From Candidatus Woesearchaeota archaeon B3_Woes (GTDB lineage Archaea > Nanobdellota > Nanobdellia > Woesearchaeales > B3-WOES): a stretch of 64,000 bases of DNA. Location of the stretch: positions 799,533 through 863,532 of the forward strand of contig NJBG01000001.1 in NCBI GenBank assembly GCA_005222965.1, given 5' to 3'. Shown here piece after piece: positions 52,339-58,855 of the stretch (positions are counted from its first letter, which is position 1; each line of letters starts with the position of its first letter). A program made the position numbers and the translations under genes. Under the pieces are notes generated by a model, which made no database searches, had not been told where the DNA came from, and worked only from the letters and a program-made list of their open reading frames with translations.

Positions 52339-52677
52339 ATGACAGAACCAGAAGAAAAACAATCAGAAGAAGTTCCTAAAGAAGAACCGAAAGAAGAAGT
52401 AGAAGAAAAAAATGAAGAGGCTGAAGTAGTTCAACCCTGTTCTGTGAAAGAAAGCCCAACAGAAATTGAAGTAATCAAAAAGATAGCAGAAACCTATATG
52501 GAAGATGTGCAAAGTATAAATGAGATAAGAATAATTTACACAAAAAGAATAAATGGTCATTGGAAAGTTCTAGTTAAATATTCAACTACTCAAGACCCAG
52601 AAATAGTATCTATGCTAATGATAAATTGGGAAACTAAGAAAGTTGATGCCTTCAAAGAAGGAGTTGTAATGTTTTAA
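52339..52677 (+). CDS. Hypothetical protein with acidic N-terminal tail
   Basis: A 112-residue protein. The first 45 residues are low-complexity Glu/Lys (EEKQSEEVPKEEPKEEVEEK); the rest is a compact alpha/beta domain (EIEVIKKIAETYMEDVQSINEIRIIYTKRINGHWKVLVKYST). SD TAAAAGGAGTTAAA. The retropepsin-like gene starts 3 nt after it. Function unknown. Confidence 0.6.
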   Translation: MTEPEEKQSEEVPKEEPKEEVEEKNEEAEVVQPCSVKESPTEIEVIKKIAETYMEDVQSINEIRIIYTKRINGHWKVLVKYSTTQDPEIVSMLMINWETKKVDAFKEGVVMF

Positions 52678-52679
52678 AC

Positions 52680-53048
52680 ATGGGGCAAATAAAAAAAGAC
52701 ATAGTTGTGCTTGGTTCTAATAATAAAGGCAAGAAATTAAGGGCACTTTTTGATACTGGTGCAACACGTAATTATATAAATGAAAATTTTATTGAGACTA
52801 ATGGAACGATTTATGATATAGGTATTAACGAATATCATAAAAAATGTGATGTAATATTTGTTGATGGAACTGAAAGGCAAGGTCAGATTATTAAATTAGA
52901 ATTATTAAATATTGAAGGATTTCAAATAAAAAAACCGAAATTCTGTTTATTCAATATGACTTCATGTGATGTTATCATAGGTGCTAAATTAATGCAACAA
53001 CTAAAGATAGTTCTTAATCCTTCTATTAAAAAAATAAGTTTTGGTTAG
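52680..53048 (+). CDS. Retropepsin-like aspartic protease domain protein
   Basis: A 122-residue single-domain protein with the clan AA signature: RALFDTGATRNYINENF (DTGA active site) near residue 24 and CDVIIGAKLMQQLKIVLNP (the ILG-type second motif) at the C-terminus. One active-site Asp per chain means a homodimer would be needed for catalysis. Coupled to the gene at 52339 with 2 nt between. Archaeal role unknown. Confidence 0.72.
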   Translation: MGQIKKDIVVLGSNNKGKKLRALFDTGATRNYINENFIETNGTIYDIGINEYHKKCDVIFVDGTERQGQIIKLELLNIEGFQIKKPKFCLFNMTSCDVIIGAKLMQQLKIVLNPSIKKISFG

Positions 53049-53091
53049 TTTCTATTTCAAACTCTTTCTTAATTATTACACAAAGCCTTCT

Positions 53092-53120
53092 ATTAGGCAC
53101 TACAAAATACACTCTTTTTA
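53092..53120 (+). repeat. Intergenic repeat, copy 1 (ATTAGGCACYACAAA family)
   Basis: ATTAGGCACTACAAAATAC then ACTCTTTTT, similar to ATTAGGCACCACAAATAGC followed by ACCCTTTT at 57647-57673 (three or so differences). Both are followed by AAGGCC and TTTCAGC elements. The copy lies between convergent genes (52680 and 53184). Meaning unknown. Confidence 0.4.
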
Positions 53121-53183
53121 ACATGGTAATAAGCTCTCTAAGGCCCTAAAACAAGCATTTCAGCTAATATACAGAAAACTATA

Positions 53184-53744
53184 CTATTCTTCAAATATCT
53201 GAGCCTGGAACTTATATACCTTAGTATTAGCATCTTTCCAAGCATCAGAGCTTAAATTAGCCTTTTGACAAGTCATTTCCAAAGCCTTAATAACATCACA
53301 ATTATATTCTGCAAATACCTGAGGCAATAATAAACCAGAACCAAACTCAGATCTAATAATCAAACCATCTTCACCAATCTTAATCTTATCTAAATACTCT
53401 TTAGAATCCTTAACATCAATCAACTCAGGAACACTTAAAACAGACATCTCAATCTTAACATCTTTAAACTCATCTTTATTCAAAGGATTAAATCTCGGAT
53501 CTCCAAAAGCAGCTGATTGTGCAGCTTCACTAACAGCCTTATACAAAGGCAAAGTAGGCTCTGGAAAACCAATACAACCTCTTAATTGTTTATTCAAATT
53601 CAGAGTCACAAAAACACCCTGTTTAGTCAAAAATCTCTTCTTAATATCTTCACTAATCTTTAAATCTGAATCAGAAAAATAAGAATTAATACTCTGCCTA
53701 GCCAACTTAATAAGTTCTTTTCCTTCTCCTTGGTTTAGTACCAT
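53184..53744 (-). CDS. AMMECR1-domain protein
   Basis: A 186-residue protein with the AMMECR1 signature: VTLNLNKQLRGCIGFPEPTLPLYKAVSEAAQSAAFGDPRFNPLNKDE and IIRSEFGSGLLLPQV. Human AMMECR1 and archaeal homologues have no proven activity; the RGCIG stretch is the conserved pocket. It follows rpo11 by 4 nt on the minus strand, the usual archaeal neighbourhood of transcription/translation genes. Confidence 0.92.
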   Translation of the reverse strand: MVLNQGEGKELIKLARQSINSYFSDSDLKISEDIKKRFLTKQGVFVTLNLNKQLRGCIGFPEPTLPLYKAVSEAAQSAAFGDPRFNPLNKDEFKDVKIEMSVLSVPELIDVKDSKEYLDKIKIGEDGLIIRSEFGSGLLLPQVFAEYNCDVIKALEMTCQKANLSSDAWKDANTKVYKFQAQIFEE

Positions 53745-53748
53745 AGAA

Positions 53749-54024
53749 TTATTTTAATTCCTTTGATAAATCTTTACGTGTTTTATCTGCAAAGGTCTTT
53801 AGCTTTTTTACTGCACTAAGCACAGCATTTCTAGGATTTGCACCATCAGTCTCAACCAAAAACTTAGGAATATTAATAAGAGGATGTTCTACCTTATATG
53901 TAGCTGTTTTTACATGGCTGTCCTCTAATAACCTCTCTTTAAGCATATTGCAAAAGCCATGAGAAACATCGTCAATCTCAAAAACAAATTTGTTTTTCCC
54001 CTCTTCAATTTTTTTGATTTCCAT
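53749..54024 (-). CDS. rpo11: RNA polymerase subunit Rpo11 (RpoL)
   Basis: A 91-residue subunit of the archaeal RNA polymerase that pairs with Rpo3 for assembly. Characteristic VFEIDDVSHGFCNMLKERLLED, TATYKVEHPLINIPKFLVET and an ending helix (NAVLSAVKKLKTFADKTRKDL). Complete length, upstream of the AMMECR1-domain gene. Confidence 0.93.
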   Translation of the reverse strand: MEIKKIEEGKNKFVFEIDDVSHGFCNMLKERLLEDSHVKTATYKVEHPLINIPKFLVETDGANPRNAVLSAVKKLKTFADKTRKDLSKELK

Positions 54025-54061
54025 AATAATACAGAGAAAATGAGCTTATTTAAAAAGGTTT

Positions 54062-54691
54062 CTAAATCTTCTCAAACACAAAACAACTGACGTTTATCCT
54101 CTTTATTCTCCGACGATGAAACCCCATTGTCTGCTTCAGAGGCCATGAAAAATCAATAGTTTCCTTCAAACTAAAGCCATTATCCTTTGAAAAAGATGAA
54201 ATAAACCCCTTACTCTCACTTTTATGAAAAGAGTATATTGTTTTAGCTATCTGAACAGCCTTTTCAAGAAAGGTTTTATCAGCATGTCTCACTTTTACCC
54301 CAAAAGGAGGGTTCATAATGACTGTATCCACCTTTTTATCAAAATCCACTACATCTTGGCATACAAATATAGCCTTTCCCCTTATTAACGAACTCTCACT
54401 TTTTATGTGTAAATAGTTGGATTTTGCTATATCTAAACTGCTTTTATCGTTATCTACAAAATATACCTTTTTTGCCCCCAATAATAAAGCCCCAATACCT
54501 AATATACCTGTACCACATCCCAAATCAGCCATATTACAACCACTTACTCTTTGCGCATAAAGAGCATGCCAAAGAACATCACTAGCTATTTCAGAATCTA
54601 CTATATATTGTTCAGCCATCACTTTGGGATCTTCAAATCCTTTTAATTTGCTTAAAATAATCCCCAACCTTGATTTTGATATTTCAACCAT
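54062..54691 (-). CDS. METTL5-like SAM-dependent N6-adenine methyltransferase
   Basis: A 209-residue Rossmann methyltransferase with SAM motif ADLGCGTGILGIGALLLGAKKVYFVDND and catalytic NPPFG, typical of adenine-N6 methylases. N-terminal helical extension (LRGIILSKLKGFEDPKVMAEQY-type) is as in METTL5/archaeal homologues acting on small-subunit rRNA. C-terminal arginine-rich GFHRRRIKRINV probably contacts RNA. Divergent from the repeat array region. Confidence 0.87.
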   Translation of the reverse strand: MVEISKSRLGIILSKLKGFEDPKVMAEQYIVDSEIASDVLWHALYAQRVSGCNMADLGCGTGILGIGALLLGAKKVYFVDNDKSSLDIAKSNYLHIKSESSLIRGKAIFVCQDVVDFDKKVDTVIMNPPFGVKVRHADKTFLEKAVQIAKTIYSFHKSESKGFISSFSKDNGFSLKETIDFSWPLKQTMGFHRRRIKRINVSCFVFEKI

Positions 54692-55083
54692 TTTATTTTT
54701 TAATCTTTATTTTTATTTAAATCTTTTGCCAATCTTTAAATTAATTTTTTTAAAATAAAATTTTTAATCATTTTTTAAAACAAAAATAAATTCAAAACCT
54801 ATATTTTTAACAAAAAATAAAACAAAAAAGTCATTCCCATTTCATTCCCAACATAGTCCCATTTTAATTCATAACAAAAAAAGTTCTCTGTCGATATTCT
54901 TTTCTATTCATTCCCAAGTCATTCCCAGATAGTCCTAAGACATTCCCAAGATAGTCCTGGGAATGACTCTTCTACCGTGTTAAAGTCATTCCCAAAATAG
55001 TCCTAGGACCATCCTGGGAACATCCCATATAGTCCCATTAAATAGAAATCTTTATATATGATAATACATACTTTACACTTAAC
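54692..55083. promoter_or_regulatory. Intergenic region of 392 bp with repeat array and promoter
   Basis: No gene was seen. The left third is very AT-rich (54692-54825) and contains the METTL5-like promoter. From 54832 to 55036 a dense array of short repeats occurs, described separately. A TATA box (AATCTTTATATATG, 55046-55059) then lies about 30 bp before the ATG at 55084, and the array directly abuts it upstream. Confidence 0.75.
54832..55036 (+). repeat. Array of CATTCCCA and ATAGTCC motifs (operator- or iteron-like)
   Basis: CATTCCCA occurs at 54832, 54843, 54909, 54920, 54941 and 54987, and inverted (TGGGAATG) at 54958. ATAGTCC occurs at 54854, 54929, 54951, 54997 and 55029, often 1-3 nt after a CATTCCCA. 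Degenerate forms (CATCCCAT, CATCCTGGGAA) lie at the right end. The positions are not evenly spaced and no CRISPR-like spacer exists. G+C rises well above the surroundings. Likely binding sites for one or two of the downstream winged-helix proteins. Confidence 0.75.
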
Positions 55084-55839
55084 ATGAAGCTTTTTTCAAC
55101 AAAAAAAAGAGATGAAAATCTTCATTATACTTTACAAACTTCTTTCCAAGGAGTTAAAGGAGACATCTCCAAAATATTTGAATGGCTTAACTACCTTTAC
55201 AACAAAACAATCCAACAGGAAAAAGTTATCCATCATCTTCAAAAACAAATCATGTATGTTCCAAAATCAAGTGAGGAGTTAAGACAGTTAATGGATTCCT
55301 ACTACTCCATCACACCTTTAGAAAATAAAGTTGATAGACTAAACTCAAAAGTTGATTCTCTCTACCAATCTCAACGTACAGTTCTCTCATTAAAATACCA
55401 AATAGAGCATATTCAAGCGAGAATTGAAACACTATCAAAATCATCTTCTGTAAACCATCTAATACCTCAAATAGAGAGGATAAATACTAAAATTGAAGAG
55501 TTAAATGAGGAACAAAAAACCATTAAAAACAGCATAGAACAACAACAACTAGAAAAGCCAGATCCTAATGTTCCACCTATCCACTTAAAAGAAAAACTCA
55601 TTAGAAAAATCGCAAGATCGAGTAAAGAACACATAAAAACCATCATTAGAACATTGATAATGAAATACGGAAAAATCTCAGCTCTACAACTAAGAGACAT
55701 CCTTGTAGAAGAACAAGCACTCTGCTCAAAAAGCACATTCTACAGGCTTTTAGAAGAACTAGAACAAGATCATGATATATCAGTTATTCACGAGAAAAAA
55801 GAGAAAAAATACGTTTATGATACGCTTAAAGTAAAGTAA
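55084..55839 (+). CDS. Coiled-coil plus winged-helix protein
   Basis: A 251-residue protein: N-terminal part with short helices, central coiled coil (about 55-160, MDSYYSITPLENKVDRLNSKVDSL, ERINTKIEELNEEQKTIKNSIEQQQ) and a C-terminal winged helix (residues 178-250: HIKTIIRTLIMKYGKISALQLRDILVEEQALCSKSTFYRLLEELEQDHDISVIHEKKEKKYVY). No nuclease or catalytic motif. It sits right beside the repeat array, whose sites it may bind for autoregulation, segregation or replication-like initiation. Leaderless, TATA at 55046. Confidence 0.72.
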   Translation: MKLFSTKKRDENLHYTLQTSFQGVKGDISKIFEWLNYLYNKTIQQEKVIHHLQKQIMYVPKSSEELRQLMDSYYSITPLENKVDRLNSKVDSLYQSQRTVLSLKYQIEHIQARIETLSKSSSVNHLIPQIERINTKIEELNEEQKTIKNSIEQQQLEKPDPNVPPIHLKEKLIRKIARSSKEHIKTIIRTLIMKYGKISALQLRDILVEEQALCSKSTFYRLLEELEQDHDISVIHEKKEKKYVYDTLKVK

Positions 55840-55893
55840 AAAATATCTATTGTAAAATATAAATATATTTAAAGAATCAATTTCCTAAAAAGC

Positions 55894-56472
55894 TTGGGTG
55901 CAAAAAAGGTGTTGTCAAATTTTAACTTGAAAAAGATTTCTTCTTCGGTAAGGTCCCTTTTTAATTCCAACAAAAAACTAAAAAAAGAGATAGAAATCCT
56001 AAAAGAGCAAGTTGAAGATCACCTAAGTTCAATCAACCAAAACACAAACGAGATACAATCAAACTACGAATATTCTCTCAAAGTTGACCCAAGAATAAAC
56101 AAACTATCAGAAAGAATCGACGAAATGTCAATGGTAATAGGTCTGAATAAACACAAAAAAAACCCTGAAATGCCAAAGCTAACCACAATCGAAAAAGAGA
56201 TCTTTTTAGCTCTTTATACTCAATGTGAAGAAAGAGAGTACACAACCTACAAAAACATCTCAACAAAAGTTAGGCTATCAGAAACACTTGTAATGAACTA
56301 TCTAACAATCTTAATTGAAAAAGGAATTCCAATCATAAAGAGCTATTCCGACGACACAACAAAGATCAAATTAAGCTCATATTTCAAAACACTACAAACA
56401 AAGAAAAACGTATTGAAAATCAACGCAGATTTCTCTAAACAAAGTGCCCTAGCACATTTCATAGAAGGATAG
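55894..56472 (+). CDS. Second coiled-coil plus winged-helix protein
   Basis: A 192-residue protein from TTG at 55894 (GTG 55909 or TTG 55912 are alternatives). The N-terminal coiled coil (NKKLKKEIEILKEQVEDHLSSINQNTNEIQ) and the C-terminal winged-helix (LTTIEKEIFLALYTQCEEREYTTYKNISTKVRLSETLVMNYLTILIEKGIP) mirror the previous gene at smaller scale, with little residue-level identity. Promoter ATATTTAAAGAAT lies about 28 bp before the TTG. Probably a partner of the upstream protein. Confidence 0.62.
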   Translation: MGAKKVLSNFNLKKISSSVRSLFNSNKKLKKEIEILKEQVEDHLSSINQNTNEIQSNYEYSLKVDPRINKLSERIDEMSMVIGLNKHKKNPEMPKLTTIEKEIFLALYTQCEEREYTTYKNISTKVRLSETLVMNYLTILIEKGIPIIKSYSDDTTKIKLSSYFKTLQTKKNVLKINADFSKQSALAHFIEG

Positions 56473-56574
56473 GATTTTAAAGGCCTTTTTTGCTTAAATT
56501 TCTTTCAAAACATAGAAATCATTAATCCAACCACATTTCAAGGCCTAAAATCAAAAATAAAGGCAATTTTATTG

Positions 56575-56660
56575 AAAATGCAACACTTCTCAGTATTCTG
56601 TTTCATTTTTAAGGCATTTTTTGGCCAAAACACAACATTTAAATACAAGTGTTGCATTTT
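56575..56660. repeat. 14-bp perfect inverted repeat, 58-bp spacer
   Basis: AAAATGCAACACTT (56575-56588) and AAGTGTTGCATTTT (56647-56660) are exact complements. The spacer contains a TATA-like CATTTAAATAC at its right side (about 56636-56646), so the right arm overlaps the likely transcription start of the recombinase leader. This fits an operator pair or DNA loop site for the recombinase gene. Confidence 0.6.
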
Positions 56661-56669
56661 TTAGTGAAA

Positions 56670-56733
56670 TTAAAGCTTTGAAAAAGGTTTATGGCTTTTT
56701 AATTTAAAGCTTTGAAAAAGGTTTATGGCTTTT
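56670..56733 (+). repeat. Two tandem 30-bp direct repeats in the recombinase leader
   Basis: TTAAAGCTTTGAAAAAGGTT plus TATGGCTTTT is present at 56670-56699 and again, identical, at 56704-56733 (period 34). Each unit has partial dyad symmetry (TTAAAGC near one end, GCTTTT near the other) and is 5-6 bp from the integrase ATG. Each also contains ATGGCTTTT, giving a tiny frame. They may be a crossover site, a leader-peptide regulator, or a duplication; function unknown. Confidence 0.65.
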
Positions 56734-56737
56734 CAAA

Positions 56738-57391
56738 ATGGCAAAAAAATTTAACGAATACTATCTTGGATGGGATGAAATAAACAGCATCATAGCTGCA
56801 GCTAAAAATCTAAAAGAAAGCCTAGTTCTAAAGCTGTTAGCAAGAACAGGAATGAGGCGCTTTGAACTAGCTAACCTAAAAGCAAAAGATGTTGATTTTG
56901 AGAGGAAAAGACTATTTATTGCTAAGGGAAAAGGAGCAAATGAAAAAGATCCAAAATCAAGATCAGTTCCAATTGACGATGATACCATTCAAGTAATAAA
57001 ATTCTATTTAGAAGGCCGAAAAACAGGCTTTTTAATCCAAAGCAATAAAAAAACCTCTGATGGCATCTCATTAAGCCAAATAAACCGTATTGTGGCTAAC
57101 GCAGCCAAAAGAGCGCATGTTAATAACCCAAATCCAAATCTAAAGAACCTAAATCCTCATATCTTTCGTCATAGCTTTTCTCGACTGAGTTTAGCAGCTG
57201 GAATACCCTTTAACATGGTCCAAAGAATTGCTGGCCATGCAGACGCTAGGACTACTTTACAAATGTACGGAATTCCTTCAATAACAGACACTCAAGAGCT
57301 CTATGAAGAAAAGCTAATAGAGAAATTTAAGCAAAAACCAAAGTCAAAAAACAATACAAAATTGACAAAATTCACAGAAAAATCAAAGTAA
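56738..57391 (+). CDS. Tyrosine recombinase, catalytic domain only
   Basis: A 217-residue tyrosine recombinase. Catalytic residues are recognisable: R40 (TGMRRFE), beta-hairpin Lys near 63-65, H141-x2-R144 (HIFRHSFSRL), H167 (GHADA), and the nucleophile Y177 (TTLQMYG). The N-terminal core-binding/SAM-like domain of Xer and phage integrases is missing, giving a short enzyme. The C-terminal tail is Lys-rich. The gene is preceded by tandem repeats that could be its sites. Likely belongs to a mobile element or resolves dimers. Confidence 0.85.
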   Translation: MAKKFNEYYLGWDEINSIIAAAKNLKESLVLKLLARTGMRRFELANLKAKDVDFERKRLFIAKGKGANEKDPKSRSVPIDDDTIQVIKFYLEGRKTGFLIQSNKKTSDGISLSQINRIVANAAKRAHVNNPNPNLKNLNPHIFRHSFSRLSLAAGIPFNMVQRIAGHADARTTLQMYGIPSITDTQELYEEKLIEKFKQKPKSKNNTKLTKFTEKSK

Positions 57392-57833
57392 TCATATAAA
57401 TAATTTGTGGTTGATTGTCGTCTATTAAATTAACCATTTATATGAATTATTGTCTTTTAAAACAAATATTATAATCTATTTGTTCTATTAAAACTATTAC
57501 AAAATAAATATTAAATAATATTGTTCTTCATTATAAATATTCTAAAATATATTTTAAAAGATATAATTAAAATTTTTAATCAAAAAGTGAGCGAAAAATA
57601 CAGTGAGCACTCACTTTTGCTACGGCAAAAGCCTAAAAAAGAGTTCATTAGGCACCACAAATAGCACCCTTTTAGAGCTTTATAGGCCTTATAAGGCTTG
57701 ATTTCAGACGTTTCAGCCATTTTAGAGACTTCACTAAAACCAATACTCAATATAGATTATAATTAGAACCTTTAGTAAGAAATCAAAAAGTGAGTTTAAT
57801 TAGGTGACTACAACATAATAAAAATGTAGACAC
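57392..57833. other. Intergenic region, 442 bp, AT-rich with palindromes
   Basis: No gene was seen. 57400-57580 is extremely AT-rich. A 14-bp direct repeat AATCAAAAAGTGAG occurs at 57578 and 57781. AAAAGTGAG (57583) pairs with CTCACTTTT (57610), AGTGAGCACTCACT (57602-57615) is palindromic, and TTTTGCTACGGCAAAA (57615-57630) is a perfect 6-bp hairpin, probably a terminator of the recombinase gene. A second copy of the ATTAGGCAC family follows at 57647. Confidence 0.6.
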
Positions 57834-57836
57834 CTA
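57801..57836. repeat. Inverted pair at 3' end of Fic gene
   Basis: TAGGTGACTACA (57801-57812) and TGTAGACACCTA (57825-57836) are complementary with one mismatch and a 12-bp loop. The Fic stop codon lies in the last three bases. The same sequence as the promoter pair at 58740-58781. It can form a terminator-like stem, or bind the same factor. Confidence 0.6.
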
Positions 57837-58727
57837 TTTGTATTGTTTTCTATACTCTAATATAAAAAACCTTAATGTGGGTTTTATATCATTATCTTTA
57901 TCAAATTCCTGAAGAACCCTATAATACTTTTCCCTATCTTTTAATCTAATATTTAATGGAGGATAATCAAATTGAAGCAAAATATAATTTAATAGTAATC
58001 TTCCAACTCTTCCATTCCCATCTTGGAATGGATGAATATTCTCAAATTGATTATGGACAAGAGCAGCAAGCAATAAAGGAGGGTACTTCTTTTTATGTTC
58101 ATTAAACCATCTAACTAAATTCTTTAAAAGTTTCTCAACATCTTTTACAGGTGCGCCTTGGTGAATTACTTTACCTATTTTATCTCTAATAATAACTTCA
58201 ACATCTCTTAGTTCTCCTGCAAAAGATTTGGTTTTATCAAAACATAGCTCATGAAGTTTTCTAATAAAACCAATAGAAAAATCATCCTTAGTTGTTTTTA
58301 TATATTCAACAGCCTTTGCCACATTAATTGTTTCAATCTCATCATTATTTTTTGGTTCATCTTTTTTTCCAAGAAGATCTTTAACCTCAGAATAATCTAC
58401 CATTGACCCCTCAATAGCATTTGTATTAAAAACAAATTCTTGTGTGAATCTTTTCCAATTTACTTGAAAATGGTTTATTTCTAATTTATTTTCATATTTT
58501 TTATAATATCCAATTTCTTCTTTGCTTAACTCAAATTCAAACAAACTTTTTTCTTTAATCTGTTCAAAAATTATTTTTTCGGATATTTTTTTTAATTTTT
58601 CAAGCGTTTTTTTATCTAAATCAGAACCAAGATATCTTGAAATTCTATTAACTTTATCTCCTAACCTATAAGAATGAATTAAATAATATTTTTTCTTTTT
58701 ACCTTGCTTTCTAATTTCAATAAACAT
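57834..58727 (-). CDS. Fic-domain protein with inhibitory N-terminal motif
   Basis: About 297 residues. Fic motif HPFQDGNGRVGR (232-243) is complete, so it can AMPylate (or otherwise modify) protein hydroxyls. The inhibitory motif (S/T)xxxE(G/N) occurs at 102-107 (TNAIEG), the class II arrangement. Residues 1-90 are an additional coil/wing-like region with KQGKKKKYYLIHSY. A minus-strand TATA (AGTTTTATAAAT) lies 25-30 bp upstream of the ATG at 58727; the alternative ATG 58736 is also in frame. Flanked by inverted repeats. Confidence 0.85.
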   Translation of the reverse strand: MFIEIRKQGKKKKYYLIHSYRLGDKVNRISRYLGSDLDKKTLEKLKKISEKIIFEQIKEKSLFEFELSKEEIGYYKKYENKLEINHFQVNWKRFTQEFVFNTNAIEGSMVDYSEVKDLLGKKDEPKNNDEIETINVAKAVEYIKTTKDDFSIGFIRKLHELCFDKTKSFAGELRDVEVIIRDKIGKVIHQGAPVKDVEKLLKNLVRWFNEHKKKYPPLLLAALVHNQFENIHPFQDGNGRVGRLLLNYILLQFDYPPLNIRLKDREKYYRVLQEFDKDNDIKPTLRFFILEYRKQYK

Positions 58728-58739
58728 TATTAACATATA

Positions 58740-58781
58740 AGGTGTCTACATTTATAAAACTTTGCTTTTTTGTAGACACCT
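58740..58781. promoter_or_regulatory. Inverted-repeat operator around the Fic TATA box
   Basis: AGGTGTCTACA (58740-58750) and TGTAGACACCT (58771-58781) are perfect 11-bp complements with a 20-bp spacer that contains the minus-strand TATA box (58750-58761). Binding at either half would cover the promoter, which fits autorepression. Two more copies occur at the 3' end of the gene. Confidence 0.65.
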
Positions 58782-58855
58782 ATTCTTTATTAAAAAACAA
58801 TCAAATCAAAAGTTATTGCAAAATTTTATAAAAACAATACTAATTACATCTAATT

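What the first reader, a model, noticed from the sequence alone, without database searches (positions are those of the whole stretch)
54832..55036. Array of two alternating short motifs before a coiled-coil winged-helix gene
Six direct and one inverted CATTCCCA and five ATAGTCC copies are packed in 205 bp next to the TATA box of a protein with a C-terminal winged helix. The irregular spacing excludes CRISPR. It resembles an operator array or replication/partition iterons. The protein has no known name, and neither does this motif pair.
Basis: partly seen in the sequence, partly recalled or inferred. Interest (0 to 1): 0.75.

Follow-up and report, generated by a model that had tools for sequence, protein, structure and literature searches.

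The report
Archaeal repeat array at a chromosomal hub
In front of an unnamed gene pair, many small-genome archaea (Woesearchaeota and relatives) keep a tight row of short DNA docking sites, in a chromosome region that often also holds a recombinase gene; it is probably a place where a chain of the neighbouring gene's protein assembles on the chromosome, and nothing like it turned up in the papers and databases searched.

Summary
In detail: six direct and one inverted CATTCCCA and five ATAGTCC lie at 54832-55035, and the pair occurs nowhere else in the 1.02 Mb genome. The "two motifs" are one degenerate site (YAKTCCCA) repeated at 11-bp pitch, one DNA turn, ending 18-20 bp before the TATA box in 32 loci, or one or two turns further upstream. 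Of 70 loci (window plus 69 homologous, Woesearchaeota-type), 64 carry their own array before the orthologue of the 55084 gene (A: coiled coil plus winged helix). Lineages whose A has another winged helix have other array motifs, so A is very probably the array-binding protein. An A paralogue in the same genome sits on a similar array mixed with origin boxes (ORBs); A loci have no ORBs. Best reading: a cooperative, autoregulatory, centromere-like nucleoprotein site for chromosome maintenance. Binding, autoregulation and maintenance are inferred, not shown. It is not CRISPR, and no origin or terminus signal was seen there.

The parts
54831..55037 (+). Array of 11-bp-phased sites (consensus YAKTCCCA / ATAGTCCYA), with some inverted copies near 54956-54965 and 55003-55020
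55051..55059 (+). TATA box of gene A; the last array site starts 19 bp upstream
   Evidence: sequence; register across loci
55084..55839 (+). Gene A, 251 aa: N-terminal long helices (coiled coil), C-terminal winged helix; proposed array-binding protein
55894..56472 (+). Gene B, 192 aa: coiled coil plus winged helix, directly downstream of A in most loci, present in 308 of 371 genomes of the phylum
56738..57391 (+). Tyrosine recombinase, 217 aa, XerA-like but below the XerA family cut-off (a representative of other loci is a full-length XerA)
54062..54691 (-). Methyltransferase gene, conserved left neighbour; carries CTCACTTT sites inside its coding sequence
54215..54402 (+). Left CTCACTTT cluster (54215, 54288, 54395), all forward
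   Evidence: left-flank totals 286 forward and 0 reverse over 70 loci
57584..57794 (-). Right CTCACTTT cluster (57584 reverse, 57610 forward, 57787 reverse) in and beside an AT-rich intergenic tract
53093..53104 (+). Left boundary element TTAGGCACTACA
57648..57659 (+). Right boundary element TTAGGCACCACA, same orientation as the left one
54889..54898 (+). Degenerate copy of the palindrome TTTATCGTCGATAAA that often separates sub-arrays in other loci; weak in this window
   Evidence: not convincing in the window by itself

Best explanation
The array is the binding platform of protein A, encoded right behind it. A, through its C-terminal winged helix, binds YAKTCCCA sites one helical turn apart on one face of the DNA; its coiled coil lets neighbouring molecules interlock, so a continuous protein-DNA filament forms. 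The filament ends in register with the TATA box and so also controls transcription of the A-B operon. Together with the flanking CTCACTTT clusters and TTAGGCAC boundary sites, with B and in most lineages a XerA-type recombinase nearby, this makes a single large nucleoprotein complex per chromosome. Its likely job is chromosome maintenance (segregation or dimer resolution), working like an iteron centromere. Shown: the array, its phasing, its promoter register, its uniqueness and its conserved company. Inferred: A binding, filament, autoregulation, maintenance role.
For: 64 of 70 loci have at least 5 core sites in the 600 bp before A against about 1.1 expected. CATTCCCA 114 copies in 45 loci against 1.4 expected, TAGTCCCA 102 in 43 against 0.5. 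Adjacent spacing is 11 bp in 229 cases, 22 in 51. The last site lies 18-20 bp from TATA in 32 loci and 29-31 or 41-43 in many of the others, i.e. plus one or two turns. The array motif changes with the winged helix of A: GGTGTTTAA-type repeats before class-level A genes with another winged helix, CAGGTTC in L217, GTCTCA before A' paralogues that have no B beside them. In 16 genomes, 11-bp TCCCA pairs concentrate at the A locus. B is near universal. A tyrosine recombinase is nearby in 44 of 70 loci and in 9 of 16 class-level loci, two of them directly adjacent to A; the representative tested passes the XerA family cut-off. The A' paralogue sits at candidate origins with ORBs. AlphaFold models A as long helices plus a winged helix.
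Against: No binding data. No ParA/SegA-type ATPase is among the conserved neighbours, and the own genome has only a sub-threshold hit. The locus is not at a conserved distance from the candidate origin (about 475 kb of 1.02 Mb in G000, 327 kb of 1.30 Mb in G011). A promoter-register array is also what a plain autoregulator would have. G011 (L113) and L101 keep A and B without the TCCCA array. In many B-bearing genomes A is not detected.
Confidence: 0.45

Rival explanations
1. Only an autoregulatory operator: A (with or without B) binds the array to set its own expression level, with no role in chromosome maintenance.
For: Array in helical register with the TATA box; array essentially confined to its own promoter in 16 genomes.
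Against: Up to 20 sites over several hundred bp is excessive for an operator; the co-conserved CTCACTTT clusters and TTAGGCAC boundary sites, the nearby recombinase, and the A' paralogue at ORB-containing loci are not explained.
Confidence: 0.27
2. Accessory sequences of a Xer recombination (dif-like) site: A, B and the phased sites build a topological filter that lets XerA resolve dimers, as ArgR/PepA do at plasmid cer sites (the cer comparison is from general knowledge).
For: A recombinase gene lies within about 4.5 kb in 44 of 70 loci, and in the class-level loci two are immediately upstream of A; the two TTAGGCAC sites are direct repeats bracketing the locus; PMC2958812 leaves open whether XerA has protein partners in vivo.
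Against: No 28-bp dif-like palindrome was identified. The direct boundary sites enclose the RNA polymerase subunit gene in most loci, so recombination between them would delete essential genes. Published archaeal dif sites lie in termination regions and, in Thermococcales, away from xerA (PMC2958812).
Confidence: 0.13
3. A second replication origin: the array and CTCACTTT boxes are initiator sites flanking an AT-rich unwinding tract.
For: Inverted flanking clusters and the AT-rich tract at 57400-57600 resemble origin layout; the A' paralogue sits with ORBs.
Against: 0 ORB-like boxes in 1126 kb of A loci against 12 in 104 kb of paralogue loci. Strand-corrected skew does not change sign around the locus in its own genome (-0.39, -0.37, -0.23). 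In G011 a skew change, cdc6 and two ORB-like boxes are at about 764 kb, not at the A locus at 437 kb.
Confidence: 0.07
4. Remnant or active mobile element: direct boundary repeats plus a tyrosine recombinase and variable cargo.
For: Direct TTAGGCAC repeats, variable genes between B and the right cluster, recombinase similar to integrases.
Against: Fixed chromosomal context (RNA polymerase subunit, methyltransferase, PAC2-like gene) over very distant lineages; B is a near-universal core gene; no relative of A in 2.9 million viral contigs.
Confidence: 0.05

Closest known systems
TubRC and ParRC plasmid centromeres (types III and II partition)
   Same: Short direct repeats beside the promoter, bound by the product of an adjacent gene that also represses the operon; TubR is a winged-helix protein that forms a filament on the repeats (PMC5016525).
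   Different: No TubZ or ParM motor gene recognised in the neighbourhood; chromosomal and clade-wide; the protein has a long coiled coil; extra flanking elements and a Xer recombinase.
Archaeal AspA-ParB-ParA (pNOB8) and SegAB
   Same: Archaeal; AspA is a winged-helix protein that nucleates upstream of its own gene and spreads as a helix; SegB binds upstream of segAB (PMC5120986). B's structural hits include AspA and Sso10a-2.
   Different: No ParA/SegA-type ATPase gene among the conserved neighbours; many direct 11-bp-phased sites instead of a palindrome; no sequence relation found.
Archaeal Orc1/Cdc6-ORB origins
   Same: The A' paralogue sits on an array interleaved with ORBs that match the Ori-Finder 2 common motif TCCA[CG]T[TG]GAAA[TC][GA]AAGGGGT (PMC4164010).
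   Different: A loci themselves have no ORBs and no cdc6 gene among the conserved neighbours.
Archaeal XerA/dif
   Same: XerA-type recombinase genes near the array locus in many lineages.
   Different: No dif site identified here; published XerA needs no partner in vitro (PMC2958812).

Membership tests
CRISPR array | Long identical repeats with unique spacers of constant length | tested here: not met
   8-9-bp degenerate sites at 11-bp pitch
Partition system (ParABS, SegAB, TubRC, ParRC) | Repeats at the promoter of the gene whose product binds them | tested here: inconclusive
   Geometry met in 64 of 70 loci and co-variation with the winged helix; binding itself not testable here
Partition system (ParABS, SegAB, TubRC, ParRC) | Cognate motor NTPase, normally in the same operon | tested here: not met
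   No conserved neighbour cluster recognised as a motor NTPase; ParA-type hit in the own genome only below cut-off. Tubulin- and actin-type motors were not searched genome-wide
Archaeal oriC | ORB boxes near the unwinding region | tested here: not met
   0 hits in 1126 kb of A loci
Archaeal oriC | Skew sign change at the locus | tested here: not met
   from sampled stretches; the overall skew of the own genome is not clean
XerA/dif | XerA-type tyrosine recombinase | tested here: inconclusive
   XerA family cut-off passed by the one relative tested, L046 (270.5 against 220), not by the window's short copy (118.7)
XerA/dif | 28-bp dif palindrome near the terminus | tested here: inconclusive
   Conserved intergenic 11-mers gave TTAGGCAC and TCGTCGA elements, no dif-like palindrome; no dedicated dif model was run
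Autoregulated transcription factor | Sites overlapping or in register with own promoter | tested here: met
Autoregulated transcription factor | Protein binds these sites and changes its own transcription | not testable with these tools
   needs EMSA and in vitro transcription
Mobile element | Variable chromosomal location | tested here: not met
   Same neighbours in distant lineages

The most novel reading that the evidence does not exclude
These archaea mark two chromosomal sites with paralogous coiled-coil winged-helix proteins, each on its own phased array: A' at the ORB-containing origin and A (with B and a Xer recombinase) at a second, CTCACTTT-flanked site. Together they would form a chromosome segregation and resolution system without a known motor, unlike ParABS, SegAB or FtsK-Xer.
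Probability: 0.25. Interest if true: 0.93.

Novelty: new variant of a known kind. Interest (0 to 1): 0.75.

Why it matters
How DPANN archaea keep and sort their chromosomes is open, and several of the genomes checked here show no clear ParA/SegA-type ATPase. This locus offers a testable candidate: a conserved single-copy DNA site, two unnamed DNA-binding proteins, a Xer recombinase and an origin-linked paralogue. It also gives a natural series in which protein and DNA motif have changed together, useful for decoding winged-helix recognition.

Tried and rejected
CRISPR: rejected on site size and spacing. Structured RNA: no Rfam match in 52500-58800 at E up to 1. Two separate motifs for two proteins: rejected, since both merge into one consensus and both occur in one array in many genomes. 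B as the owner of CTCACTTT: not supported, since B loci without A mostly lack it and A''-type loci have it; its binder is unknown. First skew reading that put the origin of the own genome at cdc6: withdrawn after a strand-balanced refit gave no clean two-replichore pattern. TTATCGWCGATAA in the window: 28 near-matches against 17 expected, none in the array. Solved structures by sequence: A hits only coiled coils, B mostly generic helix-turn-helix and coiled coils; Foldseek hits for A are weak and generic. L064 and L085 carry titles outside Woesearchaeota (Patescibacteria, Aenigmatarchaeota), perhaps misbinned; loci share ancestry, so counts are not independent trials.

Full report
Observation. 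The array is real and at the stated place. Six direct and one inverted CATTCCCA and five ATAGTCC are packed in about 205 bp. The combined pattern occurs only here in the 1.02 Mb genome. TCCCA pairs at 11-bp pitch are found three times against 0.07 expected.

One motif, phased. Aligning sites from all loci gives one consensus, roughly YAKTCCCA (K = G or T, with some C-to-T changes in the CCC). Adjacent sites are 11 bp apart in 229 cases, 22 in 51 and 33 in 19, so they lie on one face of the helix. The last site starts 18-20 bp before the TATA box in 32 loci and 29-31 or 41-43 bp in many of the others, that is one or two turns further. The window has 19 bp.

Conservation. A homologue search gave 28 of 60 relatives and 69 further loci from a genome collection, nearly all titled Woesearchaeota or Nanoarchaeota. 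Upstream of A, 64 of 70 loci have at least five core matches in 600 bp against about 1.1 expected. The exceptions are L046 and L054 (3 and 4 sites), L095 (contig end), L102 (start misassigned), and L101 and L113, where A and B are divergent. The arrays are not simple copies of one another; each species has its own, which points to selection on function. CATTCCCA has 114 copies in 45 loci against 1.4 expected.

Co-change with the protein. In class-level relatives, A keeps the N-terminal helices but has another winged helix, and many of these genes are preceded by GGTGTTTAA-type repeats; L217 has a CAGGTTC array. A' paralogues have GTCTCA arrays although B is not beside them. This is the main reason to assign the array to A. 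It is comparative inference, not binding data.

The rest of the locus. B follows A directly in nearly all of the 70 loci and is present in 308 of 371 genomes of the phylum. CTCACTTT occurs 286 times forward and never reverse in the left flank, and 105 reverse against 34 forward in the right flank; site spacing follows the helix, resultant 0.354 against a null maximum of 0.153, though related loci inflate this. In the 64-kb window CTCACTTT is found only at this locus; the genome has 15 other scattered copies. TTAGGCAC boundary sites come as two direct copies bracketing the locus in several genomes with few others elsewhere; the window has both, at 53093 and 57648. A palindrome TTTATCGTCGATAAA is enriched across many loci.

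Recombinase. A tyrosine recombinase lies within about 4.5 kb in 44 of 70 loci and in 9 of 16 class-level loci. In two of the latter, L202 and L203, it is immediately next to A. One representative (L046) passes the archaeal XerA cut-off; the window's 217-aa copy does not.

Origin question. ORB-like boxes, modelled on the published common motif (PMC4164010), number 12 in 104 kb of loci of A' and other divergent A relatives, 0 in 1126 kb of A loci and 0 in 590 kb of other stretches of two genomes. A' of the own genome has two, at about 379.6 kb. CGRT-type A'' loci have CTCACTTT and no ORB; CSKA-type A' loci have GTCTCA and no CTCACTTT. So the family appears to mark two kinds of site. The array locus shows no skew change. 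The A to A' distance in the own genome is 475 kb of about 1.02 Mb; one case is not a test.

Known systems. Motor NTPases expected of partition systems are not among the conserved neighbours, and ParA-type hits are sub-threshold in four of six genomes, the own one included. Family libraries give no name for A or B. No relative of A was found in viral contigs. Text searches for the group together with origins, or with winged-helix, coiled-coil or XerA terms, gave no description of this locus; the library is open-access only.

Verdict. A conserved, phased, promoter-linked protein-binding array at a single chromosomal hub. By geometry it works like an autoregulated iteron centromere; membership in any known partition family is not established, because the motor criterion fails and binding is untested.

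Noticed in passing
G000 C1:379600-380100 (L134:4600-5109): A' paralogue (125 aa) with a GTCTCA array and two ORB-like boxes just upstream, followed by a DUF192-like gene; candidate replication origin of this genome.
   Followed up: partly
left-flank methyltransferase genes, e.g. window 54062-54691 and L074: CTCACTTT sites lie inside the methyltransferase coding sequence, where they can read as Lys-Val-Ser in relatives, as if the DNA motif constrained the protein.
   Followed up: no
window 57391-57834: AT-rich intergenic tract followed by AAAAAGTGAGC...GTGAGCACTCACTTTTG, a compact inverted arrangement of the CTCACTTT motif.
   Followed up: partly
window 52680-53048: Small ORF that looks like a retropepsin-type aspartic protease (DTGAT motif); by eye only.
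   Followed up: no
window 57834-58736: Fic-domain protein gene just right of the locus.
   Followed up: no
L145 (G011 C1:260001-280000): A 20-kb stretch with a G+C fraction of only 0.135, against about 0.35 in the rest of that complete genome.
   Followed up: no
cluster 2 gene, e.g. L077:7615-8130: Unnamed conserved gene whose start lies just beside the left TTAGGCAC element in 39 of 44 loci.
   Followed up: no
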